IMG/VR virus record: IMGVR_UViG_3300025118_000053
Location: 1-38,239 of that record
Length of the DNA: 38,239 bases
Direction: 5' to 3' (one strand)
Source: a virus
Positions 1 to 22,400 of this stretch are shown one piece after another. The notes beneath the pieces are model-generated. The model saw only the letters and a program-made list of their open reading frames with translations. It was not told where the DNA came from and made no database searches. Each line of letters opens with the position of its first letter. Position 1 is the stretch's first letter. A program made the translations under genes and the position numbers.

Positions 1-649
1 GCATAGAAGGATCCGTGCAACCATATACAAAAGGTATACAAGAATTGTTATCAGCATTTGCTAGTGGGTTATAATTAAACATTGTGCTATCTGTACATCC
101 GTAAACAAAAGGTATACAATTACCGTTATCTATATTTGCTAATGGATCGTAATTAAACATTGTAGCATCCATACAACCATATACGATGTCTACACAACTA
201 TTATCCTCCACGTTAGCTGTTGGATCATAATTAAAAGCATTTGGATCCATACAACCATATGTGACACCTATACAACTACCATCATCTGTATTTGCTAATG
301 GATCGTAATTAAGAGCTATTGAACTCATACATCCATATATTATAGATATACAAGTGTCAGCGGTGTTAGCGTTAGAGTTATAATTAAAAGCAAGTGGATT
401 CATGCATCCTAATATAATAGGAATACAACCACCATTATCTACATTTGCCGTTGAGTTATAATTGAAAGCAGTTGTATCTGTACAACCCCAAACAGCTTGT
501 GTCAAACAAGAACCATCATTTGTGTCAGCTACAAAACCTTGGGTGTAATATTCTAAATAAGCAGAGTTTGTACAACCAGGATTATAATAACACGTATCAG
601 CGGTATTAGCCGTGTCAACATAATTAAAAGCTGAGGCGTCCATACATCC
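1..649 (-). repeat. Tandem Cys-rich GC(T/M)D...DDGSC protein repeats, secreted protein copy
   Basis: Within the secreted MAM gene, eight near-consecutive repeats of about 26 residues follow residue 653, and a ninth is cut at the window edge. Each starts GC(T/M)D or GC(T/M)N, usually has FNY(N/D)P in the middle, and ends with an Asp/Asn-rich stretch before a Cys. Two Cys per repeat suggest an intra-repeat disulfide, and the acidic residues could bind calcium; both are inferences. Four more dispersed copies lie between 2062 and about 1040. Confidence 0.85.
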
Positions 650-2605
650 TTCTATAAAAGGTTCGCAGTAATTACCACAAGAAGGCAAAGCACTGTATGT
701 TGTCCAAAATGGAGAGGAGAATCCTTGTAATGCTCCTAGTCCGTTATTTGAAAATGGATTAGTTCCTTCCTCTAATAATACAACTCCATCTGCATTTGTT
801 AATTTAAATGAATTTTGAAATGTTTGAAACGCAGTTTGTATTGGGTCTGGGTTTTGCGCGTTAGGAATCTCAAAGTAATAAACCGTAACCGGTTTGTCTG
901 TTTCTAAGTTTAATGGAAATGATTGAGAATAAAAACCTGGACCCATTGTATACGTCCAAGTGTTAGCTCCCTGCATAACTCCTAAATATGAATTACCCCA
1001 TCCATCAGCAGCATCATCTTCTATTACTAAAGTATAATTACACGTTGGTACTATATCCATTACAGTCGCGTTAGGATTGTAATTAAACATGGTATCATCC
1101 ATACAACCATAAACATGTAAGTTAGCACATGAGCTATCATCAGCAGTTGCTAATGGATTAAATTCTTGGTATGTTGGATCTGTACAACCAGGTACTGGAG
1201 GTGGTCCCGCGCAAGCTATTCCGTTTTGTGGAGTTGAATAAGCTACGTTGCCAAAATTAACACCCATTGGATTTTGATTTGCGTCTACCCAAGTTCCTGA
1301 TGTAAGATATGTTATAGTATCGCCATTGCAATCATAGATAACTACTTCACCAGCTGAGCCGGGAGTTCCATTACCCATCATTCCATCACCGTATGTATCG
1401 TTTAATATAAACTCAAAACCTGCAGTAGCAGATACACAGAAAGCGTAAGTATATGTTACGCCTATATCATTATAAGTATATGTCCCTGTTGGAGTATTTA
1501 CACCAGCGCCTGAATTAGTGACCATAGTCCAAGAGGTTTCTTGTGGCCAATTATCTAATCTAATTGTCATTGAGATTTGGTGCTCTGTTGCAGGATCACA
1601 ACTTGTACCTCCACAACTACCATCATCTTGAGTAGCCCATGGATTATATGATGCCGCTGTAGAATCCATACATCCTGTAATACAAGGATTTGGAGTATGA
1701 AATATAGTATCTGAAAATGATCCATCCGCGTATTCTAATACAGCGTAATGTTGCAGTGACCAGTTAGGTGGCATTTGTCCATTTCCAACAGATACCGCGT
1801 GTCCTTGCCAACCATTTGTAGCTGGCCAGTTACCTGGGAAGAATACAGTCCAACCATTCTCATCACCAGCGTGAACAGTAACAACATCACAGTTCTGGGT
1901 TGTTGTATCACTCTCCCATTCGAATTGTATTGCCGCTTGATTTCCCCAACACATTTGATATGATTGAGAATTAAGAAAACCACCACAAGGTGGGTACGCA
2001 CAAGAACCATCATCAGCTACCGCGCTAGAATCGTAATTTAATGCTATTACATCCATGCAACCTACAGTAAAAGGATCACTAACTATTATATCGTCTATAC
2101 ATATATCACTAGTGTAAAGAGATCCAGTAGTACCTTTAAATTGTATTTTAAATGAATCTGTTGAGTTTATTGGGAAATAAGCAAAATGCCATTCGTTGCC
2201 CTGATCACCAGATATAGTTTGTAATAAAGTATAACCATTATTATCTAGCACTCCTATTTCTAGATCTCCCATTGTGCCACCATACATATGGTACCAGAAT
2301 GATAAAACTTTACCAGGCGTAGCTGATACATCAAATGTAGGCGTATATGTTATAAATGTTTTATTAGGATAATTAGGATTTGATGACTCAACATAGTAAT
2401 ATTTACCACTACCAGTGGTGTGATCTCCAGTTGGCCCAGTATTATAACTATAAGTTGACCCTTGCCAAAAAGCCCAATCACCATCGTCGTTTGGATCTTC
2501 TTCTAAAGGAATATTATTTTCAAAATCATTAGTCCAAGGGAAAGTGTTAACTTGTCCAAAGACAAAAACAGGTAGTAATAATAATAGTAATAATATTTTT
2601 TTCAT
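1..2605 (-). CDS. Secreted MAM-domain protein with Cys-rich repeats (3' end cut by window edge)
   Basis: The reading frame is open from ATG at 2605 to the left edge (868 codons visible, no stop). Residues 1-17 are a signal peptide (MKK, a run of leucines, then VFVFG) with Q18 at +1. Residues about 22-177 form a MAM domain: a GPTGDHTTGSGKYYYVESS block at 57-75, LSFWYHMYGG at 101-110, and CIDDI at 169-173. From residue 182 come copies of a Cys-rich repeat starting GC(T/M)D, with a central NYD/NYN and ending DDGSC. Two beta-sandwich-like domains interrupt them: about 340-468 (DNWPQETSW, later DTYGDGM) and about 520-590 (DDAADGWG), both of types seen in secreted Bacteroidota proteins. From residue 653 the repeats are in tandem. 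The ATG lies 1 nt after the nuclease stop, so it belongs to that operon. Export is well supported; function (adhesion, receptor masking, matrix binding) is unknown. The C-terminus outside the window would show whether a T9SS sorting domain is present. Confidence 0.85.
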   Translation of the reverse strand, partial: MKKILLLLLLLPVFVFGQVNTFPWTNDFENNIPLEEDPNDDGDWAFWQGSTYSYNTGPTGDHTTGSGKYYYVESSNPNYPNKTFITYTPTFDVSATPGKVLSFWYHMYGGTMGDLEIGVLDNNGYTLLQTISGDQGNEWHFAYFPINSTDSFKIQFKGTTGSLYTSDICIDDIIVSDPFTVGCMDVIALNYDSSAVADDGSCAYPPCGGFLNSQSYQMCWGNQAAIQFEWESDTTTQNCDVVTVHAGDENGWTVFFPGNWPATNGWQGHAVSVGNGQMPPNWSLQHYAVLEYADGSFSDTIFHTPNPCITGCMDSTAASYNPWATQDDGSCGGTSCDPATEHQISMTIRLDNWPQETSWTMVTNSGAGVNTPTGTYTYNDIGVTYTYAFCVSATAGFEFILNDTYGDGMMGNGTPGSAGEVVIYDCNGDTITYLTSGTWVDANQNPMGVNFGNVAYSTPQNGIACAGPPPVPGCTDPTYQEFNPLATADDSSCANLHVYGCMDDTMFNYNPNATVMDIVPTCNYTLVIEDDAADGWGNSYLGVMQGANTWTYTMGPGFYSQSFPLNLETDKPVTVYYFEIPNAQNPDPIQTAFQTFQNSFKLTNADGVVLLEEGTNPFSNNGLGALQGFSSPFWTTYSALPSCGNYCEPFIEGCMDASAFNYVDTANTADTCYYNPGCTNSAYLEYYTQGFVADTNDGSCLTQAVWGCTDTTAFNYNSTANVDNGGCIPIILGCMNPLAFNYNSNANTADTCISIIYGCMSSIALNYDPLANTDDGSCIGVTYGCMDPNAFNYDPTANVEDNSCVDIVYGCMDATMFNYDPLANIDNGNCIPFVYGCTDSTMFNYNPLANADNNSCIPFVYGCTDPSM

Positions 2606-2606
2606 G

Positions 2607-2975
2607 TTATCTTTTTCCGCCGTGATACTCTACAGCATGTCCTTCTTTAATTAATAATTCATTCACATTTTCCAGTGTTAAACACTCTTTTCCATCTAAC
2701 ATGTCTATATGTAATTCACCTAGACATCTCCCATATTTTCCAACCCCATGAGATTTTAACTGTATTTGATTAGCTCCTTCTAATATAGTCTTTAATCTTT
2801 CTTTAGCTGCTAACCCTCTGGCCTTTTCCTCTAAATCTCTTGTTCTTGATTCTGGAGTATTAATCCCCATAAATCTAATTCTTTTTTTAACAGACACATC
2901 AAAACCTAAATCTATAAAAGCATCAATGGTATCACCATCAACAACCCTGTCAAGCTTTATTTTATAAGTATACAT
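2607..2975 (-). CDS. Staphylococcal nuclease-like (thermonuclease, SNase) protein
   Basis: This 122-residue protein matches the SNase fold of Ca2+-dependent, sugar-nonspecific nucleases. Seen: VVDGDT at 11-16 (D15 aligns with the Ca2+ ligand D21 of staphylococcal nuclease), RFMGINTPE at 34-42 (R34 and E42 align with catalytic R35 and E43), and KYGRCLG at 80-86 (R83 aligns with R87). The position of Ca2+ ligand D40 is N39 here, a substitution that may weaken metal binding. There is no signal peptide, so it should act in the cytoplasm unless released by lysis. Its ATG shares one base with the stop of the upstream holin-like gene (TAATG), implying translational coupling. Likely roles are host DNA or RNA breakdown or clearing DNA at lysis; which one is not shown. 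Confidence 0.85.
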   Translation of the reverse strand: MYTYKIKLDRVVDGDTIDAFIDLGFDVSVKKRIRFMGINTPESRTRDLEEKARGLAAKERLKTILEGANQIQLKSHGVGKYGRCLGELHIDMLDGKECLTLENVNELLIKEGHAVEYHGGKR

Positions 2976-3193
2976 TATTTCTTTTTTACTTTTTCAAACG
3001 AGCTAATACCAAAACATCCTAGCGTTACCCATACAAACGAATTATATACAACTTCATTTATAATTAAGTCTTTATCTGCTAATACACTAGTTAACAAATC
3101 AGCAACAGCAAATAATACCATTACCACAAAAGATGCAAATCCAACTACATTCTTTTCGTTAATATCGTTTTTGTCTTTAAATAAACTCCACAT
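2975..3193 (-). CDS. Small two-helix membrane protein, holin-like
   Basis: This 72-residue protein has two hydrophobic segments, about 16-38 (VVGFASFVVMVLFAVADLL) and about 48-65 (VVYNSFVWVTLGCFGISS). It has a charged N-terminus (FKDKNDINEK) and a basic tail (EKVKKK). Size, two membrane spans and basic C-terminus fit class II holins. No sequence family is recognised with certainty. It starts 1 nt after the stop of the thioredoxin-like gene and overlaps the nuclease start by one base, inside a cassette of membrane and exported proteins. No endolysin is seen in the window, so the lysis assignment rests on topology only. Confidence 0.55.
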   Translation of the reverse strand: MWSLFKDKNDINEKNVVGFASFVVMVLFAVADLLTSVLADKDLIINEVVYNSFVWVTLGCFGISSFEKVKKK

Positions 3194-3194
3194 A

Positions 3195-3557
3195 TTAAAA
3201 ATCGCTCATTAATTGATTATCTATTTCTTCTTGTACCTCTTCTCTTGTTGCTACCATTTTAAAACTAAGATCAGCTTGAAACCTAGCAACTTCTTCTCCA
3301 TCTTTAAATATTATAATAGTAGGTATAACTGCTATTTTATGTTCTTTAGCATCATCAGCTTGTGTGCTTATATCTACATAAGATATGGTTTTACAATCTG
3401 TTAGTTTTCCTACCCAGACAACTTCATTTGCAGAATTCCACCCAGCATTAAACTGAGATACAGATATTTGGCTAAAAGCATTTCCAGACACTAGTAAACA
3501 AACCAGCACCAATAAATACATACTAAATATTTTCCAAGTAATATCTACTTTTTCCAT
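3195..3557 (-). CDS. Exported thioredoxin-fold protein lacking the CxxC motif
   Basis: This 120-residue protein starts with a signal peptide or anchor (hydrophobic 10-25, cleavage after A27-F-S29, Q30 at +1). The mature part looks like a thioredoxin fold. FNAGWNSAN at 36-44 aligns with the FxAxWCxxC active-site strand and helix, and IPT at 78-80 carries the cis-proline P79, followed by IIIFKDGEEVARF, the usual central strands. Both catalytic Cys positions are Asn (N41-S-A-N44). One Cys remains in the mature protein (C55). It should therefore not act as a thiol oxidoreductase but could be a binding or chaperone-like protein in the periplasm. It starts 1 nt after the 92-residue gene's stop. If uncleaved it would be tethered to the inner membrane. 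Confidence 0.7.
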   Translation of the reverse strand: MEKVDITWKIFSMYLLVLVCLLVSGNAFSQISVSQFNAGWNSANEVVWVGKLTDCKTISYVDISTQADDAKEHKIAVIPTIIIFKDGEEVARFQADLSFKMVATREEVQEEIDNQLMSDF

Positions 3558-3558
3558 T

Positions 3559-3837
3559 TTATTCGTAAAGTTTGTTTTCTATTTTCTCAATAGATTTTTT
3601 AATTTCTTTAACATCTTCTTGAGTAGTCATAATAGTTTGTCTAATCATTTGATCTTTCATGTCAAACTCCATACGCGTAACCTCTGGATCTGGTGGCGCT
3701 GGCAGAGTTGCAGCTTCAGCAATATCAGCTTGTAAAACAAACCACATGCTAATTACAGTAGCCATTGCAGCTCCAATACCTATAAGTGTTTTTATGCTTA
3801 CTTGAAAACCTGTGTCTTCGTTTAATTCTTTTGCCAT
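3559..3837 (-). CDS. Single-span membrane protein with coiled coil (spannin- or holin-like)
   Basis: Ninety-two residues: a short polar N-terminus, one hydrophobic helix at about 17-36 (TLIGIGAAMATVISMWFVLQ), a Pro-rich stretch (LPAPPDPE), then a charged heptad-like coiled coil from about 57 to 91. The N-in, coiled-coil-out layout resembles inner-membrane spannins (Rz type), but no outer-membrane lipoprotein partner with a lipobox is seen nearby. A holin role is the alternative. The gene starts 1 nt after the stop of the outer-membrane barrel gene and heads the run of small membrane proteins. Membrane topology is a fair reading; the function is inferred. Confidence 0.55.
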   Translation of the reverse strand: MAKELNEDTGFQVSIKTLIGIGAAMATVISMWFVLQADIAEAATLPAPPDPEVTRMEFDMKDQMIRQTIMTTQEDVKEIKKSIEKIENKLYE

Positions 3838-3838
3838 T

Positions 3839-4918
3839 CTAAAATATAGTGTAATTCATTCCTAATTTAAAGTCGTACCATTCTCTATTCCAGTACTTGT
3901 TATATTTTCCTTCTATAAAATATCCTAAGTTTTTATTTTGCTTTATACCGTATATTAATCCCGCGGAGTAGTCATACCATTGGCCATCAACATAATTGTG
4001 ATATGAAAACTCACTACCATCATCATAATGATAAGGCATTAAACTTGCCCAAGCATGTGTCCAAGTTTTCTTAGTATATTTATAATAATCAAAACCTACA
4101 ACAAAAGAATGTTGTATTGTTTTCTTTAATTCGTTTCTTTTTCTTTCAGTATAATCTGCCAGTACTTGTGGTACAACTAACGCTTCCCATACCTCAGCAC
4201 TAGTAGCAACTAGTTCGCCAGCAGGGCTATAGTATTCGTTGCTATACACATCAACTTCATATCCCTCTTCCAAAGCCAAGTAAGTATAGTGAATATTATT
4301 ATTGTTTAACATCCATTCGTCCAGCGCATTATAGCCATATGGCTCTGCTAGTCTATGTGTTAGCCCAATATTCCATGATAGATTTCTACCTTTACGATGT
4401 CTATATCTCTCTGAGGCTTCAAAGTATTTGATATCCGCAAAACCATCCTCTAAGTATTCAAGTTTTAAAGCAAAGAAATTAATACATAATTCATCTGGGC
4501 AACCATCATCAGAACTGAATCTAATAAAGTGGTGTTGATCCATATAGTCTACACCTTCTTGTCTTTTGTAGTTTACCTCAAATAAGTATTCAACTCCTTT
4601 TACTTTACCTACAGTGGCCGCATCACTATAATTAGATTCCGTACCATCGTAGAAACTTTTGCCTTTGGTTTCATAACCAAATCTAGCAATTTTACGTAAA
4701 CCTATGGTAAAATTATAATCATAAGGAGTTGAAATAGTCTGTGTAGATAATCCGTTATTTACAGAAAATACATCAACATCAGACAGAGACGTTCCACCGT
4801 TTACAGCGGCATAGAACGTAGAGAACTTTAACAAGTCCTTAACCTCTTCTTTTCCAAACGTTTGAGCTACTGTTATATTAGATATAAGTAGTAGCAGTAT
4901 TATTAGTCTTTTCACCAT
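3839..4918 (-). CDS. Predicted outer-membrane beta-barrel protein with signal peptide
   Basis: This 359-residue protein has a clear signal peptide (MVKR, Leu/Ile run, then ITVA with Q19 at +1). The rest is rich in alternating aromatic/polar strands, for example YLFEVNYKRQ, HHFIRFSS, NLSWNIGLTHR, HSFVVGFDYYKY and KNLGYFIEGKYNKYW. It ends in FKLGMNYTIF, a C-terminal Phe strand like the beta-signal recognised by BAM. A Cys pair (GCPDELC) may form a loop disulfide. I read it as an outer-membrane barrel; no enzyme motif is visible. It starts 30 nt after the giant polyvalent gene and leads the exported-protein cassette. Possible roles are changing host surface properties, blocking superinfection, or aiding release. 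Function is unknown. Confidence 0.65.
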   Translation of the reverse strand: MVKRLIILLLLISNITVAQTFGKEEVKDLLKFSTFYAAVNGGTSLSDVDVFSVNNGLSTQTISTPYDYNFTIGLRKIARFGYETKGKSFYDGTESNYSDAATVGKVKGVEYLFEVNYKRQEGVDYMDQHHFIRFSSDDGCPDELCINFFALKLEYLEDGFADIKYFEASERYRHRKGRNLSWNIGLTHRLAEPYGYNALDEWMLNNNNIHYTYLALEEGYEVDVYSNEYYSPAGELVATSAEVWEALVVPQVLADYTERKRNELKKTIQHSFVVGFDYYKYTKKTWTHAWASLMPYHYDDGSEFSYHNYVDGQWYDYSAGLIYGIKQNKNLGYFIEGKYNKYWNREWYDFKLGMNYTIF

Positions 4919-4948
4919 CTTTATATTATCACTTATTTTTTGAATTGT

Positions 4949-7900
4949 TTAATTATTCTTTAAAAGAAACCTTTTATATCTAGCATCTATAATTTCACTA
5001 TCAGTTTTTTTCCTTGATTTTTTCTTTTTCTTTTTCTCAGTTTCAATACCAACACTATAAGGCGTCCAACCAGCTCCCATTAAAAACCTTTGCCATGTTT
5101 CATACTGGTCGCTCAAAGCGTGGCTCATATTAAATATGTTTTGGTATGGGGAATAAACAGGCGCGTTAGTAGTTGCTTGTACTGTCATTAATGAAGCTTC
5201 TAAAGATGGATTACCTAATTTAAATTTAAACCCTTCGCCTGTTTTATCCCATTTAAGTCTATCACCAGCTCTATCTAACATACCAAACTTAGAACCAATT
5301 GGTGGTGATATATTTAATAAATCTTCAGCAACCTCGCTGTAATCAGCAGTGTAACCCTTTGCGGATTGTTTAAAATATTCTTGTGTAGCATTTTTAAATG
5401 CCGATATAGTTGCTCCTGGTATACCAAAACCTCTCAACATAGAGTCGGTCGTTGTGTTTAACGCCATTGACTTTGTATTAGCTATTCTTTCTTCAGACAC
5501 ATCGTCATCATTCAATAACATGGCAAACAACGCTGATTGCAATCCAGCGAATACAGCTACTTGAGCCCCCATATAATAAGATATCTTACCTACTTTTTCC
5601 GTTGCCTCAATAGCATTTTTATATCTACCTTTAGATAAGTCAAGTATCTCTTTTACACCAAGCCTGTTCATTTGCATTGGAGTGTTAGCAAATGGTAATA
5701 AAAATCTACCTATTAACGATGTTTGTTCTTTAGATAATAAATCCGCTCTTGATGACTGCTGTGTTCTTTCTGCTATTACTTGAAAATCTAACCAAGCTTG
5801 TTTTTCAGCTTCCTTAGTTTTCATACCTTGTTTTTCGTACATTTTAATTCTATTTCTATAGAACGTAGCACCACCAAGTGATATTGCAAAACTATCTGCA
5901 AATTTAGTTGGTAAGTAACCAGCCTTAAGGACTTTAGCAATCATTCCTTGTATAGGATTTTTTGAAGAAGCGGCCGCAGAAGCAAGCTCAGCTTCAGTTA
6001 CGTTTATAGCCAAACCATCTCTTCTTTGCTTTAGCATATCAGAGTTCATTATAAACTTAAAATCCTTAGCAAACTGTTTTACGTTACCCATTGCTCTAGC
6101 AGCTGCAATAGGATTGTTCTCTCTCATATTTAAGAAGTTAACAGTAGATATAGTTTGTAGCGCGGCTGATCTAGTATTAAAATTCATAATAGTACCAATA
6201 CCTCCATTTAGATAGTTCATCATAGCAGCACTACCTCTATCTAATTTTAAAGATCTAGTTCTACCAGTTTCCATACGATCAAACATATCTTCAATATTCT
6301 CTCTCCATCGAGTACCTAACTTAGACTCCATCTTGTTTAGGTTCTCTTCGGTAAATATTTCGTTTTTTCTATCTATCCACTCTTGAAGATATTGTTTTCT
6401 ACTAACACCTCTATTTATATTAGTAACTTCTCCAGCCATTGTTTCTGCCCACCAGTTTTGCCCTGGTTCTTTTAATCCTTTTTCTTGCTTTGTTATTCTA
6501 GCAAATTGTTCTGCGTAAGCCTGTAGTTTTGGATTGTTTTGAATATGCTCAACTAATTTAGTCTCTGTTGATTTTGCTAAATCTGGAATTTTATAACCAG
6601 CTTTATTCCAAAGATAAACTCGCATTGCCATATCGTTCGTAAATGTAGTTCCTTCAACTTCTTTTGAAATTTCTTTAACTACATCTTTATTCTGCTTACG
6701 AAGGTTTAAATAATCGTTTTTAGCAGATTGTCTAGCTGTATTATAGTCTCTTATGCCTCTTTCAAATGGCATTACAAACTCTTCTTTAAACCATTTTTTA
6801 TTTTCAATACCTTTCTTACCCTTACCGTATAAAGGCTCTATAAGGAGCTCTAAATCAGCAGCGCTATCTCGCATAAATATTCTTCTACGCTTGATATCTT
6901 TACCTCTAACTTTAGCCTCTGCTTTTGAGAATACTTTTTCAGAACCTATATCTAAAGAGTGCTCCATTATTTTATTAATATCAACGTCTAGTTTTGTGCT
7001 AGCTAAAGCTTGTTGCACTTTAGATTTTATATCTAGTTGACTTAAAACATCTTTAACAGCTTTAACATTGGGCAAAGCATCGTCAACAAAATACATATCA
7101 TTGTATCCTTCCGAAAACTTCTTTAACATCCACATTGCTTTTGCTTCTCCAGTACTATTACCTAAACCAGTAATATTTTTCAAAGGTATATTTACACCTT
7201 GTGTTTTTAACCACTCATGTATTGCTGGGGCGCTTTCTTTAGCTCTAGCTGTTAGTATAAACACGTTATCTGGGCCATACTTCTTGATTTGATTTTTCAT
7301 CTTCTGCATTAATGGTCCTGGTTTTCCTTTTGTAACCTTATTAAAATCAGAGAAATCCATTTTCCAACCTTCTTTAATCATTTTATCTCCAACAAAAGGC
7401 CATTTATCAGATGCTATCTTTTTAGTTTTACCACCTTTAGTAGCGATAACAAAGTTTTCACTAACACCAACCGTTTCATCAAAATCAAATACGCTTGCGC
7501 CTCTTGCTTTTTTATTTCTTTTTCTACCTAGTTCTACAGCCTTATCACCTATTCTCATACTAGCTAAAACTTCAGATGGTTTAGCGTTTTTAACTATAGG
7601 TAAACCCCCTTGTTTTGCTATTTTTAAGTTTTGTTTTTCAACTAACTTTTGTTGTTTAAGTATTTTTTGAAGATTTTTAGGACCAAATATTTCTTTACCA
7701 GCTCTCTCCATTATAACTTCATATAGATTCTTCTTAATATTAGGATCTGTAGATTTAAAATCCATTAAAACCTCTGGGTGTAATAAAGCCATTCTATATA
7801 AACCAGCACTATTAAGTTTTCCACCAGAAAAATCAATAACATCTAGCATTGTTTTTGGAGCAGTTAACCCAATGAAATCAGAAGCTATATCTTTATTTAC

Positions 7901-10900
7901 GCCTTTAAACTTTCCACTAGCAACTAAATTAGCTGTCTCAATTGCTTGAGCGGCCATAGCTTTAACATGTTCTAGTTTTATTCTGTCTCCAACTGGTAAT
8001 TCTCCCTTGTATAACCATTTTACAGGAACTGTTTGCCTAACACCTTGTACTAAATTACTATTAGCTTTTGCTATAGAATACATCCAATCCATTCTTGATA
8101 AAAACTCCTTCTTGGTTTTGGCATCATATATATAATCTTGCTTTGCGGATTCTAAAGCGTGATACATATCAACTCTAGATTTATTATGAATTTGAGAAAA
8201 TACTTCATCTCGTAAAACGTCTCTTTCAACACCTTCTTTCATTTTAGAAAGTTTAGCATTACCATCTCTCATTTGCTTTTCGCTCTTAAACGCTAGTTTT
8301 AAACCTTTAAAAGCTTGGTTTGGATTTATACCTATTCTCTTTAATACTCTATCATAAGTAGTTGTAAATGGTTGTTCACCAATATAGTTGCCATCTGTAT
8401 CTTTAATTAAGCGCTTTACTTCTCCACCGCTCTCTTTAACCCAACCTTCATTTAAAAGTTTTTCACTAGTTTCAACCCACTTGTCGTAAGACATTTTTTG
8501 TGTTTCTTTCCCTCTTTTTACAATAACATTTTCAAAAACAGCTTCTCTAAATTCACCTAAAAAACTAGTTCTTTGGTGAAGACCTAGAACGTGTTGTAGA
8601 AACCCTTTTGCCTGGCCAGGTGTCATTACTGTTTCCAATTGTTTTAATAAATCTTTAGGCAAATACTCTGCAAATTTTTCCGAGTGAGCAGATCTTCTAT
8701 TTGCTTTACCTACATCAACGTAGGTATTACCATCTTTTACGTAAGAATTTGCTGATAAATCAACCCCTTTTTTAATATCTTTAAGTGTTACAACTTCTCC
8801 ATTTGGAAGAGTATAGCTTTTGAATTCTAACGCATCAAAACCTCTTTTAACTATATTGGCCTTAAGTCTACCTTCTTTACCCACTGTTTCTATAGCTGCC
8901 CATTTTGAAGCGTGGTCTTTATTTGCAAAATCTCCAACTTCAAAGCTTTCAATCCAATCATGATATTTTTTATCAATTTTTGCTCTATCACCTAAAGCAT
9001 GGTCTATAAATATATTTCTAGCTCCCTCCCAATCTTTTTTAAACTTAGGGAACTTTTGAATAAAGCCATCTAATAATTCACTTGCTAAACCTTCACTAAC
9101 ACCAGCTTTTAATTGCCTTTCGTGTTGTTGAGCTAGTTTATCAAATTTAAAATCAGGATGTGCTCTCATTGCAGATCTTACAGATTGATTCCAAATAGAA
9201 TAACCAACTTGTGACATTAATGCTTTATACATTTGAGAAGCGTTAGGATTATCTAGTGAAAATAAATCTAAAAAGTTTTGTTCAAACTCTGCCTTGTAAG
9301 TGGCATCACCTGTTCTCTTATATCTTAACAAAGCTTCAGCTTGCATATATGGAGCTAAACCAGCTGAGGTTCTTGCTCTCTCTGGTATCTTATCATATAA
9401 AGGTGTTTTTGTTTGCAGAACAGTTTGAACACCTGCAGCCTTACCTCTTACTACATCTGGAGCAACATCTATCATCTGTGTTTTATCAACAACAGTTTGA
9501 GCTCCTTTAGAAAACGCTTTAATTATAGTAGGTAAATACTTATAACTACCGTCTTTATTTTTAGTTTCTAAAACTTTTCTTATAGCCTCTAAATCAGGCT
9601 TGTTTAACTGTTGGGCCATAGCCGTTTTTAAAGGTTGCCCCTCTTTGCCAACTAAAGACATTTTATTATACATAGCCTCACTAACATTAAAAAACTTAGT
9701 TACAATGTGTTTTTCAATACTTTTTCTATATTGATCTATGGTGTTTTTATGGCTAACAACCCTCTTATTAAATTCTTTTTTACTTTCTCCTGGTTGTTTT
9801 GGAGAAAAATCTAAATCTTTAAGGGTTGATTTCGCTATATCAATAACATTGTCACCGGCTATCGTCATTCTATCAATACCGAGCTCTTTAGCAACTTCAA
9901 GCAATTCTCTTACTTCTACATATGACTCAGCTGTTTCTTCTGTTAAACCTCTATCTTCTAACCACTTTTTTCTTTTCATTTGGGCCGCTGGAGATATATC
10001 TTCGGTTTCAAATTTCTCCATCCAAGTATCTTCATACTTAATTTCTTTTGCCCCTTCTATATCAGTGCTTTTTTCAAATTCTTTTTTAGTAAATTTATCT
10101 ACAGACTCCAAAAATCTAACGTCAAATTTTCCCCCAATAAACTTACCCAACGGAAATGTTTTTGGGTTTATTTCCCCACTTTGCACTCGTCTATTATATT
10201 CAGCCGTTAAACCCTTGATACCACGTTTCCCGGTTAAAAAATCTCTTACAACATCGTCTTTTATAACTTCCCACCCAGGTATTCTACTACGCTTAGATAC
10301 AGCATTATAAACCCGCGCCGCGCCAGCATTACTACTTATAGCCGGATCATAAGAATTTATTATATCATAAATATTGCTACCAACTTCCAAATCTAAAATA
10401 TCTTTTTCAAGTTTTTCTTTCATTTCTGGAGAAACTTTAGAAGAATCAATCTTTTTTAGACTTTCTAATTTTTTAACATCTTTTGGATCTCTAGGTTTAC
10501 TATATATTTCTTGGAGTTTATCATTAAAAGTATTATCTTCTTCTTCTTTTATTTTTGTTAATATAGGATTTCCCTTTCCATCAACTAATACTTGTGAAGA
10601 CAAACCTTTTTCTTTACCTTTAGTTAAACTAGAGAACAAAGCGTCCATAGTAATAAAATCTCCTTTTGTAGAACCAATAAGTTTCGTTCCTATTTCACCC
10701 GGTTTAGTTGTTTCCATTTCCTTGCCATATGGCGTCCATTTATCAACTAATTCTGTTAACTTTTTAAAGTGTGCTAAACTAGGACCTCCTTCTCCAATGT
10801 TCTTATGATATTCTCCAAACCAATTTATAATGTCATTCTTAGTTCTTGTTTGAAGTTCTAGACGGGCTTCTTTTTTAGAAACCTCTCTACCTATACTTGA

Positions 10901-13900
10901 GTCTATCCATTTCTTTAGTCTATTCCAACCGTTACTTTTGTCTACTCCTTTAAGGCTTGCACCATCTCTTATAGATTGGGATATATAAGCAAACAATTCA
11001 GCCTCTTGTACTTTGGCTAAATCCATATCTTCTAAAGAAGCTATACCTTTATCTTTTATAGCATCATATAAAGAAAGATTTTCTCTTAATTTAATACCCT
11101 TAGTTAATTCTAAAAGCTTTTTAATCGAAGCGGCTTTGACATTTTTGTTTTTCATCGCTATTTTATATAGCGGATGATGAATCTCGTGAGAAACTAAACC
11201 AGGTGTTAAGTGATTAGGGTCTAATTCTATTTCAATTTTACCCGTTTTTTTGTTTATAACAAAACCACCACGTCTACCAGTTTCTCCTTCTGTTTTCCAA
11301 ACAACATCAATACCTTTAAGACCTTCTTCTTTTAAAATATCTTTATTTGCTTTTTCAACACCTTTAACTTCTTTTTTAGCTAAAGATGGTGCTAATAAAG
11401 GATTGTTATAATCAGCAAGACCATCTAATTCCCATATTCTTCTTTGTGCTTCTGTATGTAAGTCGTTCCATTTATCAAACTCTGCTTTTTTACCTTTTTT
11501 TATACTTGCGTTGCCATCAATATCGTACTCTACATATTCGTTTAGTTTTTCTGCAAACTTTCCCTTGGCATCAATTATTCCCTCGTAAGTCATTCTGTCA
11601 AAACCACCAGGGCCTCTAAGTTTTGCGTGAGGCACTGCTAACGCGGCCCCTAAAACATAATCAGTTATAAGACTGCTCATTATCATATCTGGATCGTCGT
11701 ATTTTTCTTTTAAAAATGTTTGCCATTCTTGATGACCAGAGACATCTTTTATTAAAGCATTAAACGCTTCCCCAGCTTGATTACCAACTACCATACGCAT
11801 ACCCATCGCGTTGCCATCATATATAAATTTCAACGCACTAAGCCTTTTTTGTATCGACGGTGCAAGCTTGTTAAAACCAGGTATGACTCCACCAGCTAAA
11901 TTAAAAGCCATACCTTTTGGCATACCTTCTATATCTTTTTCAACCATAGAAAAAACCGTACCCTCAGTTAGCATTGCGACAGCTTTTATTTTTGCTTTGT
12001 TAATAGTACTTGGGCCTACTATATCAATAACTTGTTTTCCTTTCTTTATATTCGCTGGAGACGCAATAAAAGCGCCTATAGTACTTAATTCAGTTGTAGA
12101 AAGATTTAAACCTTTACCTTCTATAGCGTCCATATTCTTTTTCTTAGCCCACTTATTTACTTTCTTTACAACTTTCGATTCATCTACAAGTTTTTTGCCT
12201 TGTTTATATCTAGACACGCCAAGGCCTTGTACCCACCTATTAAGACCAGTTAAATATTTAACTCCATTAACGAGTTTTCCATAACCCCCAAACTCTATCA
12301 CAACTTTTGGTAAACCACCTAATCCTTCAGCCACCATATCAGCCGTGTTTGTTTTAGAGTGTTCTCTAGCTGCTCTATTCAAAGGAATGTTCATCTCTGA
12401 ATATATATCTTTTATCGCGGCTACAGTTTGAGCCTCTGTAACACCATTATTAATTATAGCTGTATTTGGGTTGTCACCAAAAGAAGTTACAAAAGATCTA
12501 CCAGCTTGCTGGACAAGTCCTCCTAAATTTGATTTATCTACAGTTTCTAATCTTTCATTTAAAAGATACATTCTTTTTAAACCCTCCATTTTAGAAAGTA
12601 ATTCTGCTTTTTGAGCTAATAAAACATCATAATCATCTCTTTGATATTGACCAAATAAACCTTTATTGTATTTAGCGAATGGAGCGGCATATCTACCAGT
12701 TCCAGTTCCTTTTATCTCTTTTGTTTTGTCTTCAAATTCTGATAAAGCAGCGGCTGTTCTAAGAAACTCAAACTTTAGTTCTTCTCTTGTTAAACCCTCA
12801 TAATTAGCCATTTGATCTTGAACTAAATCCTTAAGATTTATTATATTCTCGTTTTTAGCGTCGGAAACGCTAGGAGCTAATTTACCAGTTTCCATATCAA
12901 ATAATATATCGTAATTAGCACCACCTTCTTCTACGTACTTTTTTACAAGTCCATCTAATTCTAATTGTAAACCTTCTTTTTCACTTTCTTCAGCTCTATC
13001 AATTTCAATTAATTTATTTTTGATGTCTTTCTCCTGAACAGAAAAACTAGCCGAGTGCTGTTTGTGATATATGTCTTCTACTTGTACCGGCGTATAACCT
13101 TGATCTTTTAATTGTTGAAGCTCTGTGTTAGCATCTTTTTTTGCAATAGCATCCCACTCAACACCCACATGTGAATCAACGACACTAGTAACTATTTCGT
13201 CAATATCTATATTAGTTAGATTATCGAAATTAGTTCTAGCTGTACTAAGAATTCCGCCTAAAGCGTTTTGATCAGATAATATATGTTGTACTAAAGCTTC
13301 TTTATTGTCTGGTGTAGCTATATTACTAAAGTTTGTTATGTTATTTTTTTCAAATATTTCGTTTAATTTAACTGGATTGTTTAAGTAGTTTTTATTAACT
13401 ATTTCAGTTATTTCTTTTTTATCTTTGTAATACTCTGGTGTATCCTCAAAACTTTTTTGTCCTTGAGTTAAAAATCTTTTTAAAGTATCGCTATAATCCC
13501 ATCCTTTAGCTACATTTCTACCAACTCTTATGTTTATAGAAGCTCCTTTTCCTTTATCCTTAGTAACAGTAAATTCATTTCCTAAAGTTCCAGATGTTTC
13601 TACAACATAATCTGAACCGAGTAATTTACCTAATTCTTCGGACATTAATTCTTCAGAATTCCATTTCGTAGAGTGCTCATCCCATATCCTATCAATTTCG
13701 CTTCCAACATTGCTATCTGGCGCGAAAAAAGTTTCTTGTTTGCTTTCTATATAATCAGCTATTTCAAATTTTAATTTAGCTAAACCCTCATCATCACTAG
13801 GAACCTTGAACGGTCGAGGTGATTTTTGTCCTGGTAGTTTAACCATTATAGTGCCACTACCAAGTCTAACTTTATTAAATTTAACCCCAGGATATTGTTT

Positions 13901-14341
13901 GTGAAGATCTTCAAAGCTTTCGTCACTCATGAAGTTATCTACAGTCTCTCTCCCGACGTCAAGTTTACTAGTATCAACAATTCTTGTTGACGCATTATCT
14001 ACAGCCGTTGGATTTATTTCTGTAAAGAAATTATCAAACTTAGATTCCACGCCTTTAGGTGGAGTAGTTTCTTTTTCCTCTTTTTCCACGGTTGCCTCAC
14101 CAATTTCATAATCATAATCCCCAGCTTCAATTCTGTCTAGTAATACCGACGAACCATCGTCCGACCCTGAAACCATAGCGTTTGACTCCGTCGTCTGGGT
14201 CTCTGTCGAGGAGTCGTCTGTCTTTTCCACCATCCCGGCTTTTTTCATGTTAGCCATGTAAGTATCAAAATCTAGATTGTTGTCTTGCGCATAACCTTGT
14301 AGATCTCCAAGAGTTAAGGGTTGACCATTTAATTCAAACAT
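4949..14341 (-). CDS. Giant polyvalent internal virion protein with zinc-peptidase and HAD phosphatase motifs
   Basis: At 3,130 residues this occupies the place of T7 gp16, after gp14- and gp15-like genes. It is probably packaged in the head and ejected with DNA. The N-terminus (LNGQPLTLGDLQGYAQDNN) and an acidic linker to about residue 110 lead into long helical stretches. A zinc metallopeptidase motif HEIHH lies at 1052-1056 (H1052, E1053, H1056), with E1113/E1115 in QEAELFAY as possible third ligand. A HAD-family domain spans about 2280-2440: DFDET at 2286-2290 (nucleophile D2286, general acid D2288), LTAR with T2364, and FVDDALPN with D2420/D2421. The C-terminal part has GRFLLPFANTPMQMNR, a membrane-like segment at about 2918-2940, and a lysine-rich tail. 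Multi-enzyme giants of this kind are called polyvalent proteins. What each enzyme acts on is unknown; helping DNA entry or countering host defences is inference. Confidence 0.8.
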   Translation of the reverse strand: MFELNGQPLTLGDLQGYAQDNNLDFDTYMANMKKAGMVEKTDDSSTETQTTESNAMVSGSDDGSSVLLDRIEAGDYDYEIGEATVEKEEKETTPPKGVESKFDNFFTEINPTAVDNASTRIVDTSKLDVGRETVDNFMSDESFEDLHKQYPGVKFNKVRLGSGTIMVKLPGQKSPRPFKVPSDDEGLAKLKFEIADYIESKQETFFAPDSNVGSEIDRIWDEHSTKWNSEELMSEELGKLLGSDYVVETSGTLGNEFTVTKDKGKGASINIRVGRNVAKGWDYSDTLKRFLTQGQKSFEDTPEYYKDKKEITEIVNKNYLNNPVKLNEIFEKNNITNFSNIATPDNKEALVQHILSDQNALGGILSTARTNFDNLTNIDIDEIVTSVVDSHVGVEWDAIAKKDANTELQQLKDQGYTPVQVEDIYHKQHSASFSVQEKDIKNKLIEIDRAEESEKEGLQLELDGLVKKYVEEGGANYDILFDMETGKLAPSVSDAKNENIINLKDLVQDQMANYEGLTREELKFEFLRTAAALSEFEDKTKEIKGTGTGRYAAPFAKYNKGLFGQYQRDDYDVLLAQKAELLSKMEGLKRMYLLNERLETVDKSNLGGLVQQAGRSFVTSFGDNPNTAIINNGVTEAQTVAAIKDIYSEMNIPLNRAAREHSKTNTADMVAEGLGGLPKVVIEFGGYGKLVNGVKYLTGLNRWVQGLGVSRYKQGKKLVDESKVVKKVNKWAKKKNMDAIEGKGLNLSTTELSTIGAFIASPANIKKGKQVIDIVGPSTINKAKIKAVAMLTEGTVFSMVEKDIEGMPKGMAFNLAGGVIPGFNKLAPSIQKRLSALKFIYDGNAMGMRMVVGNQAGEAFNALIKDVSGHQEWQTFLKEKYDDPDMIMSSLITDYVLGAALAVPHAKLRGPGGFDRMTYEGIIDAKGKFAEKLNEYVEYDIDGNASIKKGKKAEFDKWNDLHTEAQRRIWELDGLADYNNPLLAPSLAKKEVKGVEKANKDILKEEGLKGIDVVWKTEGETGRRGGFVINKKTGKIEIELDPNHLTPGLVSHEIHHPLYKIAMKNKNVKAASIKKLLELTKGIKLRENLSLYDAIKDKGIASLEDMDLAKVQEAELFAYISQSIRDGASLKGVDKSNGWNRLKKWIDSSIGREVSKKEARLELQTRTKNDIINWFGEYHKNIGEGGPSLAHFKKLTELVDKWTPYGKEMETTKPGEIGTKLIGSTKGDFITMDALFSSLTKGKEKGLSSQVLVDGKGNPILTKIKEEEDNTFNDKLQEIYSKPRDPKDVKKLESLKKIDSSKVSPEMKEKLEKDILDLEVGSNIYDIINSYDPAISSNAGAARVYNAVSKRSRIPGWEVIKDDVVRDFLTGKRGIKGLTAEYNRRVQSGEINPKTFPLGKFIGGKFDVRFLESVDKFTKKEFEKSTDIEGAKEIKYEDTWMEKFETEDISPAAQMKRKKWLEDRGLTEETAESYVEVRELLEVAKELGIDRMTIAGDNVIDIAKSTLKDLDFSPKQPGESKKEFNKRVVSHKNTIDQYRKSIEKHIVTKFFNVSEAMYNKMSLVGKEGQPLKTAMAQQLNKPDLEAIRKVLETKNKDGSYKYLPTIIKAFSKGAQTVVDKTQMIDVAPDVVRGKAAGVQTVLQTKTPLYDKIPERARTSAGLAPYMQAEALLRYKRTGDATYKAEFEQNFLDLFSLDNPNASQMYKALMSQVGYSIWNQSVRSAMRAHPDFKFDKLAQQHERQLKAGVSEGLASELLDGFIQKFPKFKKDWEGARNIFIDHALGDRAKIDKKYHDWIESFEVGDFANKDHASKWAAIETVGKEGRLKANIVKRGFDALEFKSYTLPNGEVVTLKDIKKGVDLSANSYVKDGNTYVDVGKANRRSAHSEKFAEYLPKDLLKQLETVMTPGQAKGFLQHVLGLHQRTSFLGEFREAVFENVIVKRGKETQKMSYDKWVETSEKLLNEGWVKESGGEVKRLIKDTDGNYIGEQPFTTTYDRVLKRIGINPNQAFKGLKLAFKSEKQMRDGNAKLSKMKEGVERDVLRDEVFSQIHNKSRVDMYHALESAKQDYIYDAKTKKEFLSRMDWMYSIAKANSNLVQGVRQTVPVKWLYKGELPVGDRIKLEHVKAMAAQAIETANLVASGKFKGVNKDIASDFIGLTAPKTMLDVIDFSGGKLNSAGLYRMALLHPEVLMDFKSTDPNIKKNLYEVIMERAGKEIFGPKNLQKILKQQKLVEKQNLKIAKQGGLPIVKNAKPSEVLASMRIGDKAVELGRKRNKKARGASVFDFDETVGVSENFVIATKGGKTKKIASDKWPFVGDKMIKEGWKMDFSDFNKVTKGKPGPLMQKMKNQIKKYGPDNVFILTARAKESAPAIHEWLKTQGVNIPLKNITGLGNSTGEAKAMWMLKKFSEGYNDMYFVDDALPNVKAVKDVLSQLDIKSKVQQALASTKLDVDINKIMEHSLDIGSEKVFSKAEAKVRGKDIKRRRIFMRDSAADLELLIEPLYGKGKKGIENKKWFKEEFVMPFERGIRDYNTARQSAKNDYLNLRKQNKDVVKEISKEVEGTTFTNDMAMRVYLWNKAGYKIPDLAKSTETKLVEHIQNNPKLQAYAEQFARITKQEKGLKEPGQNWWAETMAGEVTNINRGVSRKQYLQEWIDRKNEIFTEENLNKMESKLGTRWRENIEDMFDRMETGRTRSLKLDRGSAAMMNYLNGGIGTIMNFNTRSAALQTISTVNFLNMRENNPIAAARAMGNVKQFAKDFKFIMNSDMLKQRRDGLAINVTEAELASAAASSKNPIQGMIAKVLKAGYLPTKFADSFAISLGGATFYRNRIKMYEKQGMKTKEAEKQAWLDFQVIAERTQQSSRADLLSKEQTSLIGRFLLPFANTPMQMNRLGVKEILDLSKGRYKNAIEATEKVGKISYYMGAQVAVFAGLQSALFAMLLNDDDVSEERIANTKSMALNTTTDSMLRGFGIPGATISAFKNATQEYFKQSAKGYTADYSEVAEDLLNISPPIGSKFGMLDRAGDRLKWDKTGEGFKFKLGNPSLEASLMTVQATTNAPVYSPYQNIFNMSHALSDQYETWQRFLMGAGWTPYSVGIETEKKKKKKSRKKTDSEIIDARYKRFLLKNN

Positions 14342-14355
14342 ATTATATTTTTTTA

Positions 14356-15786: not shown

Positions 15787-15804
15787 ATTTTATATTTGTT
15801 TATT

Positions 15805-16545: not shown

Positions 16546-16546
16546 G

Positions 16547-16960: not shown

Positions 16961-17014
16961 AATATTTTATTTAATTATAAGTATTATAGTCACAGTTTTC
17001 ACCGTTTTTTTACT

Positions 17015-18952: not shown

Positions 18953-18968
18953 TTATTATTATTTTTAT

Positions 18969-19385
18969 TTATTTACTACTTTCTGAAACTTCCGAACTAA
19001 TTGAAAACAATTCTACTGGGCTTGTAGAGTAATTTTTAAACTCTACTTCAGCATAATAACCTATTAAACTTGAAGAATTAACTTCTTTATTTTTAGCAAA
19101 CATAATATAATCATTAAGAGCAGGTGGAGAAACTTGAGTCTCATCATAAGCAACAACAATAGTATTAACCGGTATATTTGGTATACCATATTGTTGCTGC
19201 AATGTAAAATTCCCATTTAAAAATAAATCTGTAACAACACCAAATTTTACTATAGTCCCGTAATTGCTTACAGTTTTAAAATCACTATTAGTACCAGCAG
19301 ACTGAGTTGGTGAATAATATACCATATCACCTACTTGCAAACTAACATTAATTTTATCACTGAGTGTTAAATTTTCTAATATCAT
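18969..19385 (-). CDS. Small putative virion protein, unknown family
   Basis: This 138-residue protein begins LENLTLSDKINVSLQVGDMVYYSP in its first 30 residues. It is beta-rich throughout, with an SH3- or OB-like look (GDMVYY...GTIVKFGVVTDL...NTIVVAYD), and ends in a Ser/Glu-rich tail. There is no signal peptide and no catalytic motif. It lies 18 nt after the giant tail protein and just before the 645-residue structural protein, so it is probably a small tail component or chaperone made with them. I cannot name its family. Confidence 0.5.
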   Translation of the reverse strand: MILENLTLSDKINVSLQVGDMVYYSPTQSAGTNSDFKTVSNYGTIVKFGVVTDLFLNGNFTLQQQYGIPNIPVNTIVVAYDETQVSPPALNDYIMFAKNKEVNSSSLIGYYAEVEFKNYSTSPVELFSISSEVSESSK

Positions 19386-19403
19386 ATTTTATTTATTTAT
19401 CAA

Positions 19404-22400
19404 CTATAACTCATAAGTTGCACAACCACCATTCAAGCAAGATGCTGCGTCAAATCCAGTTTTTAATAGCCCTATTACTTCTATTGTGTGACCTGCATCA
19501 AACGCAACATCCGATTCGCTACTACCACTACCTATATACTGTTGAATATATCCAGTTCCATCACCAGAGGCTGTAGGATGATTAGGGAAATAAATTGCAA
19601 ATGCTGGAGAATCAGTAGTACCCGTAAGATGATTTGTAAGCACAGGATTGCCATTAGCATCAAGATGTCGCAAAACGCCCGGTGGTATTATCATCTTGCT
19701 AGTGCTAGCCCATTCTGGAGAACCTGGCCCTTTATTAGCATCTGTACTATTAAAAGCCATCCATCTAAAGAAGTTAATTGGACCACCAGTAGCAAAAGTA
19801 AGGCCAAAAGTAACGATTCCATAACCAGTTGTCGGGGATGTTAGCACGCTAGTATTGGCAACCGGGTAATTATATTGGTGATTACCGCCATAATTACATC
19901 CAAAAAAGCCAGTACCAGCAACAACAGTATTGTTATTTGCAGTGGCATCATAGTTACTTGCAGCAGGTACCATACAACCGTAAACACTAACTATACAAGA
20001 ACCATCATCTGCGGTTGCTAATGGATCATAGTTAGTGGCCGTTGAATCCGTACATCCTAAAACATCATATGTACATGAACCATCATCTACAACCGCGGAT
20101 ATATCGTAGTTATTTGCAGTAATGTCAGTACAACCTGCGGTTTGATTACCGTATGTATACAAACAACTTCCATCATAAATAGTAGCTGCTGAATCGTAGT
20201 TATACGCATTAGAATCTGTACAACCAGGTATACTACCTGAGACATTACCAGATAGCAGTGTAACAGTTTGAACTGGTCCAAAACCACCTACCGCTGGACA
20301 TTTTACTCTCCAATCTACATTTATAGATGGTGATTGTGGTGGTAGACTAACGCCAGAAGATACCGCTTGACACGGTGAAATACAAGAAAATCCGGGACCA
20401 ACACCACTATAGTGCACTGCATAACCATTAGTGGCACAACCTGGTACTTCATCCCAATATAATTCTGCTGAAAAATCCATGCCATTTGTAGCAGTATTTG
20501 AGGGATTAATTGTAGCCGTAGGAATTGCATAATACCCTGTATACGCACATGTGCTATCATCAACATTAGCATTAGGATCGTAGTTAGTAGCTGTTGGATC
20601 TGTACAACCAATGTATGAACACTGAGTAGCATCGTGACAAATATCCGCACTGGAATCATAATTAGCCGCTAAAGGATCAGCACACCCAAAGAATGATCCA
20701 CATGAATTATTATCATTTGTTGCAGTTGGATCATAGTTACAAAGAGATGCAGGGTCTGTACAACCATAAACTGGATACGTACAACTACCATCATCAACAT
20801 TAGCATTAGGATCATAGTTTAATGCTACTCCTCCATTTGTATTTGGATTATTATCCGTACATCCAGAATACAAACAAGTAGCATTATCAATGTTAGCAGT
20901 AGCATCATAATTGTCCGCAGCTGGATCTATACAACCTAAAACAATAGGGATACAAATACCTATGCCTGGATTTTCAGTTGTTGCTTCACAAGTAGCATTG
21001 GGGGCATAGTTAACCACTCCAACTCCTGCCTCATCCATACAACCATATATGCAAGCTTCACAATTACCATCATCTATAGTAGCCGCTGCATCGTAATTAA
21101 CAGCCGTTGGATCTGTACAACCCGCACATGACGTATATTCACAACCAATATTTACATTTGCGCTAGCACTATAATTACATGCTAAAGATTCCATACAACC
21201 TTGTTGAAACGCCGCACAACTTCCATCATCCATATTAGCGGTAGGATCATACCCAAACATTGTGTTATCTGTACATCCCCAAATTAACTCATCACAGCAA
21301 TCATTGTCACTAGCAGGATCGTAACCAGGATCACCTGGCATTCCAGTACTGTTACAAGGCACGTTATAAGTAGAACTATAGCTAGGACCATAATTATTAT
21401 TACCATCTGTTGTTGTATCCATACAACCTTGCCAAACGCATTGGTTACCATCATCGTAACAAGCTGTGCCATCGAAGTTATCAGCAGATGAATCCATACA
21501 TCCAGCATTATAACAGCAAGAACCATCATCATCATTTGCAGTAGGATCATAGGTACCACCTATAGCAGTAGAATCTGTACAACCAGACACAAACGGCACG
21601 CAACAACTAGCACACTGTGTGTTTGCATTTGAATTATAATTAAACATATTAGAATTCATACAACCATCTATAAATGGAACACATGAACCATCATCATAAT
21701 AAGCACTAGCGTCATAGTTAGAAGCAGTGGCATCTGTACAGCCATAATTAAATGTACAATTACCATCAGACGCGGTTGCTGTAGAATCATAGTTATTTGC
21801 ATTTGAATTCATACATCCATAAATGTATGGAACACATGCTAAAGGACCTACTGTTGGACTTGTGTTTGCAGTAGGATCATAGTTAGAAGCAGTGGCATCT
21901 GTACAACCTAGAGCAAGAGGTATACAACAGCAATTAAGCCCAACTTGCATAACCCCAAGCTCATCAGTAACACAAGCGGGACCATTACCTTCGTAACAAG
22001 GAGCAGTATATATAACGGTATTGCCACTACTATCGGTATTATAGTTAGTAGAGTTAGCGTATTGTATTCCATAATAACTTGTAAAAGTATTGTCTGTACA
22101 TCCATATTTAATTTCAGTTACACAACTCCCATCATCTAATGTTGCGTTTGAATCATATTCTGTATAACTGTCATTTGTACAACCAGGAACGTGAAAAATA
22201 CATGATCCGTTGTCAAAACATACTGTTGCGTCGTAATTAGAAGCTATAGGATTTGTGCAGCCAGCAGTATGGCAACATGAACCATCATCAATAATAGCGA
22301 GTGGATTGTAATTTATAGCACTAATATCCGTGCATCCTAAATTTTGGTAAGGTGTTGAGCCTGCTAGCATACCTAGCCCTTGAAAAGAACTGTCGGCACT

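What the first reader, a model, noticed from the sequence alone, without database searches (positions are those of the whole stretch)
1..22337. One Cys-rich repeat family in two phage proteins: tail and secreted
Seen: the unit GC(T/M)D...NYD...DDGSC occurs about 24 times in the tail protein (residues 2345-3158) and at least 12 times in the MAM protein (residues 182-868, continuing past the edge). The tail protein has no signal peptide; the MAM protein has one. So the same module seems to be built into the virion and also sent out of the infected cell. Inference: the exported copy could occupy or mask the surface target of the tail copy, or both could bind the same host glycan or adhesin. The repeats may also recombine and swap specificity.
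Basis: partly seen in the sequence, partly recalled or inferred. Interest (0 to 1): 0.85.

Follow-up and report, generated by a model that had tools for sequence, protein, structure and literature searches.

The report
Host surface repeat borrowed twice by phage
A marine crAss-like phage carries the same kind of small cysteine-rich repeat, common in its likely hosts' surface proteins, both on the tip of its tail and in a protein that the infected bacterium is made to export; the exported protein turns out to be part of a widespread, phage-specific gene set, while the tail copies are optional.

Summary
A 21-residue unit, GC[TM]D....NY...A..DDGSC, starts 24 times in the tail protein (residues 2345-3158) and 13 times in the left, truncated protein; shuffles give under 1. 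The tail protein is a Crassvirales muzzle with the array after its C-terminal domain. The left gene is a phage gene. Its closest relatives end in a type IX secretion (T9SS) sorting domain, so it is a phage-encoded T9SS cargo, and it closes a conserved cassette: outer-membrane barrel, small membrane protein, exported thioredoxin-fold protein, secreted repeat protein. The barrel is in at least 580 viral stretches but only 1 of 246 Flavobacteriales genomes, that one on a contig carrying the cassette. The unit itself is a host module: 74 of the 246 genomes carry it. In the window the tail units resemble host units more than the phage's own secreted units, and the secreted units resemble other phages' secreted units most. 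Only 17 of 67 complete muzzles have arrays, while 47 of 50 cassettes have the secreted protein. The modules look independently acquired; a shared target or mask is possible but not indicated. Surface coating by the exported protein is the likeliest function, untested.

The parts
2..2605 (-). secreted repeat protein (signal peptide-like start, MAM domain, beta-sandwich-like middle domains, at least 13 repeat units); truncated at the contig edge, so its C-terminal T9SS domain is not in the window
   Evidence: T9SS domain in the closest relatives L007, L008, L009, L025, L032
2081..2506 (-). MAM domain (residues 34-175)
   Evidence: PF00629 E 4.9e-24; Foldseek to solved MAM domains, e.g. 8yt7, 33% identity
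2..2062 (-). repeat region of the secreted protein (residues 182-868): spaced units first, then a tandem array
   Evidence: DNA period 78 at 113-339
2607..2975 (-). SNase-like nuclease, optional member of the cassette
   Evidence: PF00565 E 1e-11; present in part of the related contigs
2975..3193 (-). 72-aa membrane protein, holin-like by eye, optional
   Evidence: sequence
3195..3557 (-). exported thioredoxin-fold protein without a CxxC motif (TrxSP), core member of the cassette
   Evidence: PF00085 E 5e-5; alignment of relatives; 67 of 80 barrel-anchored loci
3559..3837 (-). 92-aa membrane plus coiled-coil protein (TM2), core member of the cassette
   Evidence: 71 of 80 barrel-anchored loci
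3839..4918 (-). outer-membrane beta-barrel protein (OMP), core member of the cassette
   Evidence: AlphaFold2 model with 14 strands, pTM 0.71; Foldseek hits are outer-membrane barrels, low TM-scores; at least 580 viral stretches, 1 of 246 Flavobacteriales genomes
4949..14341 (-). 3130-aa protein, conserved next to the cassette in most crAss-like relatives; no repeats
22440..29369 (-). muzzle core (residues 1-2310), tail-tip protein of crAss-like phages
   Evidence: phrog_14478 E 1.1e-125; PF25729 at residues 2199-2307, 26.4 bits vs cut-off 27; homologues in Cellulophaga and Flavobacterium phages annotated structural
19896..22337 (-). C-terminal array of the muzzle: 24 repeat units, with one inserted domain of about 107 aa before the last units
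19404..19895 (-). distal C-terminal region of the muzzle after the array (residues 3159-3321)
   Evidence: tips differ between phages
35350..37770 (-). portal protein, places the contig among crAss-like phages
   Evidence: phrog_6547 E 2.1e-154

Best explanation
The repeat is an extracellular spacer or adhesion module of marine Flavobacteriales surface proteins that phages have taken up more than once. In this phage it occurs in two separately evolving contexts. (1) In the secreted protein, the last gene of a phage-specific envelope cassette (outer-membrane barrel, TM2, thioredoxin-fold protein, secreted protein), it makes up the body of a type IX secretion cargo: the signal peptide takes it to the periplasm, the host's T9SS moves it through the outer membrane, and it is displayed on or shed from the infected cell, which it coats with a host-like layer. 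The most likely benefit is that the coat, together with the barrel, keeps other virions or the phage's own progeny from adsorbing to the producing cell or its debris. (2) On the muzzle, the array is an optional, length-variable, C-terminal fibre-like appendage that reaches for the cell surface. Shown: architecture, phage ownership, T9SS signal in the closest relatives, conservation of the cassette, host occurrence, separate relatedness of the two arrays. Inferred: surface display, coating, exclusion, and the fibre role of the muzzle array.
For: T9SS type A domain above the curated cut-off in the five near relatives tested, and in 20 of 30 full-length relatives at E<=0.01. Cassette order conserved: of 50 barrel loci with at least 4 kb downstream, 47 have a signal-peptide-like repeat ORF; TM2 71 of 80, TrxSP 67 of 80. 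Barrel in 1 of 246 Flavobacteriales genomes, on the contig L047 that holds barrel, TM2, TrxSP and secreted gene; the repeat in 74 of the same 246; 14 of 16 repeat-bearing genomes have SprA, a T9SS marker; host repeat proteins L049 and L051 also end in T9SS domains. Muzzle arrays begin shortly after muzzle homology ends in nearly all array-bearing muzzles (L161 and L164 read differently in that count), with varying unit number, inserts and tips. Repeat genes also lie beside short tail fibre genes in a Kyanoviridae record (L126) and near a baseplate wedge gene in L177. Perforin-2 holds one unit, apparently in its EGF-like hinge (PMC6989145). The crAss001 muzzle is at the tail tip and varies in length by insertions (PMC10172136).
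Against: No functional data. The window copy of the secreted gene is truncated, so its own T9SS domain is not seen. Ten of 30 aligned members (the truncated window copy among them) do not reach E 0.01 for the sorting domain, though many C-termini look alike by eye. Gene position beside structural genes suggests late expression, while superinfection exclusion is usually early (own knowledge). For the six muzzle phages, own muzzle-secreted similarity is slightly above that between phages (0.526 vs 0.517, permutation p 0.006), which hints at some shared pressure or composition; the v1500 set shows no such effect. The barrel- and muzzle-anchored samples are the 80 best matches, not random draws.
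Confidence: 0.5

Rival explanations
1. Matched pair: the secreted copy occupies or masks the surface target that the tail copy binds, or both bind the same host glycan or adhesin.
For: Same superfamily in both genes; repeats in both genes in six contigs where muzzle and secreted gene are both seen (window, G010, G011, G013, G023, G032); slight within-phage excess of similarity in those six.
Against: Units of the two genes fall in different groups; the secreted gene is kept where the muzzle has no repeats (G002, G006, G025, G026, G027); only 17 of 67 complete muzzles carry arrays.
Confidence: 0.15
2. Pure spacer: the repeats are neutral, disulfide-stapled rods in all these proteins, and the binding function lies in the non-repeat domains (MAM, inserted domains, muzzle tip).
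For: The perforin-2 unit appears to lie in the EGF-like hinge between two domains (PMC6989145); two fixed Cys per unit; very variable unit number (3-23) with inserts between units.
Against: In some muzzles the array runs to within 2-21 residues of the C-terminus, with no further tip domain (L164, L191, L197, G013).
Confidence: 0.3
3. The cassette serves lysis or virion release: barrel, TM2, holin-like and thioredoxin-fold proteins disrupt the envelope late in infection, and the secreted protein helps shed or disperse progeny.
For: The cassette follows the structural genes and sometimes includes a holin-like protein.
Against: No endolysin recognised in the cassette; a T9SS cargo of about 1,000 aa would be an unusual lysis protein.
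Confidence: 0.2
4. The left gene is a host gene or a binning artefact beside the phage contig.
For: Contig ends inside the gene; host genomes carry similar repeat proteins.
Against: Same gene and order in dozens of viral contigs, 19 of 33 tested with a crAss-like portal.
Confidence: 0.02

Closest known systems
crAss-BACON tandem repeats in gut crAss-like phages (PMC6949934)
   Same: Tandem repeats of a Bacteroidetes-associated extracellular domain in phage ORFs near tail or structural genes; in one cluster T9SS-sorting ORFs lie nearby and one repeat ORF also has a T9SS domain.
   Different: Different domain (BACON); no constant cassette with an outer-membrane barrel and thioredoxin-fold protein seen in the passages read.
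Phage-encoded T9SS cargo of Cryophage (PMC7468147)
   Same: Phage genes that carry T9SS type A sorting domains and would use the host's secretion system.
   Different: Those are an endoglucanase, a glycoside hydrolase and a PA14 protein, described as variable genes; here it is a repeat adhesin-like protein present in 47 of 50 cassettes with enough downstream sequence.
Crassvirales muzzle protein gp44 of crAss001 (PMC10172136)
   Same: Homologous tail-tip protein; known to vary in length by insertions.
   Different: Here the extension is a C-terminal array of Cys-rich units after the muzzle core, not an insertion in the crass or IG2 domain.
Perforin-2/MPEG1 EGF-like hinge (6u2j, 6sb3; PMC6989145)
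   Same: One unit, [21 protein letters not shown], with identical spacing, E 2.8e-4.
   Different: Single copy in an animal pore-forming protein; no tandem array.
Repeat-rich T9SS surface proteins of marine Flavobacteriales
   Same: Same unit, signal peptide-like start, T9SS domain.
   Different: Cellular proteins without the phage cassette.

Membership tests
Crassvirales (crAss-like phages) | crAss-like portal and muzzle homologues in the expected gene order | tested here: met
   portal phrog_6547 E 2.1e-154, muzzle phrog_14478 E 1.1e-125; gene order shared with related contigs
Crassvirales (crAss-like phages) | whole-genome placement (terminase, capsid, polymerase genes) | not tested
   window is a 38-kb fragment; no tree was built
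Crassvirus muzzle C-terminal domain (PF25729) | score above the curated cut-off | tested here: inconclusive
   26.4 bits against 27, E 9.6e-6
T9SS type A cargo | C-terminal sorting domain TIGR04183/PF18962 | tested here: inconclusive
   the window copy is cut before its C-terminus; met above the cut-off in L007, L008, L009, L025, L032 and in 20 of 30 aligned members at E<=0.01
T9SS type A cargo | N-terminal signal peptide | tested here: inconclusive
   typical sequence by eye and AF2 helix 2-16; no predictor available
T9SS type A cargo | export through T9SS observed | not testable with these tools
   needs expression in a T9SS-positive strain and a T9SS mutant
MAM domain proteins | PF00629 above cut-off and MAM fold | tested here: met
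   85.4 bits vs 26.4; solved MAM domains found by fold
EGF-like module of perforin-2 | sequence match over the whole unit | tested here: met
   profile A4 to 6u2j_A 332-352, E 2.8e-4
EGF-like module of perforin-2 | same fold and disulfides | not tested
   the AF2 model of the repeats has pLDDT of about 60-75 and coordinates were not compared
Superinfection-exclusion or receptor-masking proteins | blocks adsorption of phage to the producing cell | not testable with these tools
   function inferred only
PorP/SprF-type T9SS partner barrels (for the OMP) | match to the family model | tested here: not met
   no such family reported for 3839-4918 in Pfam or NCBIfam

The most novel reading that the evidence does not exclude
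Marine crAss-like and related phages carry a dedicated, phage-specific surface-takeover cassette (barrel, TM2, thioredoxin-fold protein, T9SS cargo) that re-coats the infected flavobacterium with a host-mimicking repeat layer, while tails of some of the same phages use the same host module to engage that layer or its host counterpart.
Probability: 0.25. Interest if true: 0.85.

Novelty: new variant of a known kind. Interest (0 to 1): 0.62.

Why it matters
It indicates that phages exporting proteins through the host's type IX secretion system is not a curiosity (PMC7468147 calls its case a unique occurrence) but a constant feature of a large group of marine phages, with a phage-specific barrel and periplasmic partner. 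It gives a concrete, testable system for how phages of uncultured marine Flavobacteriales remodel the cell surface, and points to an uncatalogued repeat (no Pfam or NCBIfam match to the units of these two proteins) shared by hosts, tails, exported phage proteins and animal perforin-2.

Tried and rejected
Left gene as a host neighbour: rejected by the conserved cassette. Gene conversion between the two genes: no support, units group apart; DNA matches between the two genes are short (best 79% over 72 bases; 96% over 24 bases) and there is no tandem array at DNA level in the muzzle. Repeat-number variation in near-identical contigs: a 23-bp probe before the array found no other contig, so it could not be tested. 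Search of annotated phages: the repeat was found only in Marine virus AG-345-P14, and barrel and thioredoxin-fold proteins in none. PDB sequence search of the muzzle, the 3130-aa protein and the barrel profile: nothing. Literature search for the repeat motif found nothing relevant; the 'cysteine-rich repeat' paper PMC7379824 concerns another repeat.

Full report
Observation. The window is a 38,239-base virus record. Repeat units GC[TM]D....N[YF]...A..D[DN]GSC start 24 times in the 3321-aa protein at 19404-29369(-) and 13 times in the truncated protein at 2-2605(-). Shuffling gives less than one start on average and at most five. Across 673 distinct 21-residue units from viral ORFs, G1, C2 and C21 are fixed (they are part of the search pattern), and A14 (96%), N9 (92%) and Y10 (90%) are nearly so.

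Identity of the tail protein. Residues 1-2310 are a crAss-like muzzle: phrog_14478 E 1.1e-125, crAss_MUZ_C E 9.6e-6 but 0.6 bits below its cut-off. The portal is phrog_6547, E 2.1e-154. In crAss001 the muzzle sits at the tail tip and its crass domain is thought to contact the cell (PMC10172136). The array follows the muzzle core. In nearly all array-bearing muzzles examined it starts within about 75 residues of the end of detectable homology, and unit number, inserts and tips vary. In the window the core homology was cut at residue 2310 by the query itself. In a muzzle-anchored sample, 17 of 67 complete muzzles had two or more units. L196 has a repeat-free muzzle followed by a separate 1008-aa repeat gene.

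Identity of the left protein. It has a signal-like start and a MAM domain, supported by fold. Thirty-seven viral loci encode relatives. Of 30 aligned members, 20 match TIGR04183 or PF18962, the T9SS type A sorting domain; the five near relatives tested singly all pass the curated cut-off. The window copy is cut before this point.

The cassette. Whole-contig maps show barrel, TM2, thioredoxin-fold protein and secreted protein side by side in muzzle-type phages and in phages with an unrelated repeat protein of about 1,500 aa, called v1500 here. Of the 80 best barrel-anchored viral loci, 71 have TM2 and 67 TrxSP; of the 50 with at least 4 kb downstream, 47 have a signal-like repeat ORF, and one of the three others (L335) shows a repeat ORF whose start was probably misread. 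In 246 Flavobacteriales genomes only one has the barrel, on a contig that also holds TM2, TrxSP and the secreted gene. No barrel or thioredoxin-fold relative is in 50,697 annotated phage records at the limits used. The barrel model has 14 strands and pTM 0.71, with low-TM hits to many outer-membrane barrels.

Host side. The repeat profile matches 74 of the 246 genomes at E<=1e-10, mostly genomes of 0.8-2.0 Mb; one 2826-aa host ORF holds a long run of equally scoring units. Two host repeat proteins tested have T9SS domains, and 14 of 16 repeat-bearing genomes have SprA. Outside this group, the unit sits in a gene beside short tail fibre genes of a Kyanoviridae record and near a baseplate wedge gene in L177. 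One unit is present in solved perforin-2 structures, apparently in the region between MACPF and P2 that the authors call an EGF-like hinge (PMC6989145); that placement rests on sequence position, coordinates were not inspected.

Are the two arrays a pair? Secreted units are a recognisable group: 85% of units from other genomes and 7 of 8 from the window are called secreted when their genome is left out. Muzzle units are not a group of their own: 25% are called muzzle, 34% host, 26% v1500. Window muzzle units score 0.632 against own secreted units, 0.690 against host units, 0.692 against other muzzles; window secreted units score 0.667 against own muzzle units and 0.731 against other secreted units (best of eight). 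These are descriptive scores on 21-residue units, not a tree. Within-phage similarity is very slightly above between-phage similarity for six muzzle phages (p 0.006) and not for nine v1500 phages. Five crAss-like contigs keep the secreted gene with a repeat-free muzzle. I conclude that the arrays were acquired, or have evolved, separately.

Mechanism. Best supported: the secreted protein is a T9SS cargo displayed on or shed from the infected cell, part of a phage cassette that modifies the envelope; coating against adsorption is my first choice, lysis or release a real rival. The muzzle array is best seen as a variable fibre-like extension. The steps from T9SS domain to surface display and from display to exclusion are inference.

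Comparison. Phage T9SS cargo (PMC7468147) and crAss-like repeat ORFs with T9SS links (PMC6949934) are published; the constant cassette and this repeat were not found in the papers searched, which cover only open-licence PubMed Central.

Noticed in passing
window 3195-3557(-) and the other 48 copies: Exported thioredoxin-fold protein that lacks CxxC and in most copies shown ends in a highly conserved RFQADLSFKM.AT..EVQEEI...LMSDF; function unknown.
   Followed up: partly
L138, L140, L141, L144, L153 (barrel) and L027 (secreted protein): Several barrel proteins, and the secreted protein in L027, start with a lipobox-like C..PK.CC.Q segment instead of a plain signal peptide.
   Followed up: no
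G232:C6:16596-18764 (L316): A Flavobacteriales genome holds a long run of equally scoring tandem units in one 2826-aa ORF, suggesting recent amplification.
   Followed up: no
L126:3598-5142 (MH319765.1): A Kyanoviridae record carries three units in a gene beside short tail fibre genes, so the module also reached phages of presumably cyanobacterial hosts.
   Followed up: partly
L009:899-5254, L011, L013, L014, L027, L041 and about 30 more: A second, unrelated non-secreted repeat protein of about 1,500 aa (v1500) lies upstream of the cassette; no PHROG match for the L009 copy; possibly a tail protein.
   Followed up: partly
L161:10896-11861, L196:9959-12982, G025 10032-11381: Stand-alone repeat genes directly next to the muzzle, as if the array can be fused or separate.
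   Followed up: partly
window 20001-22000 and 1-2000: GC content is raised (0.38-0.40 against about 0.32-0.37 elsewhere) over the repeat-coding parts, probably from Gly/Cys/Thr/Asp codons.
   Followed up: no
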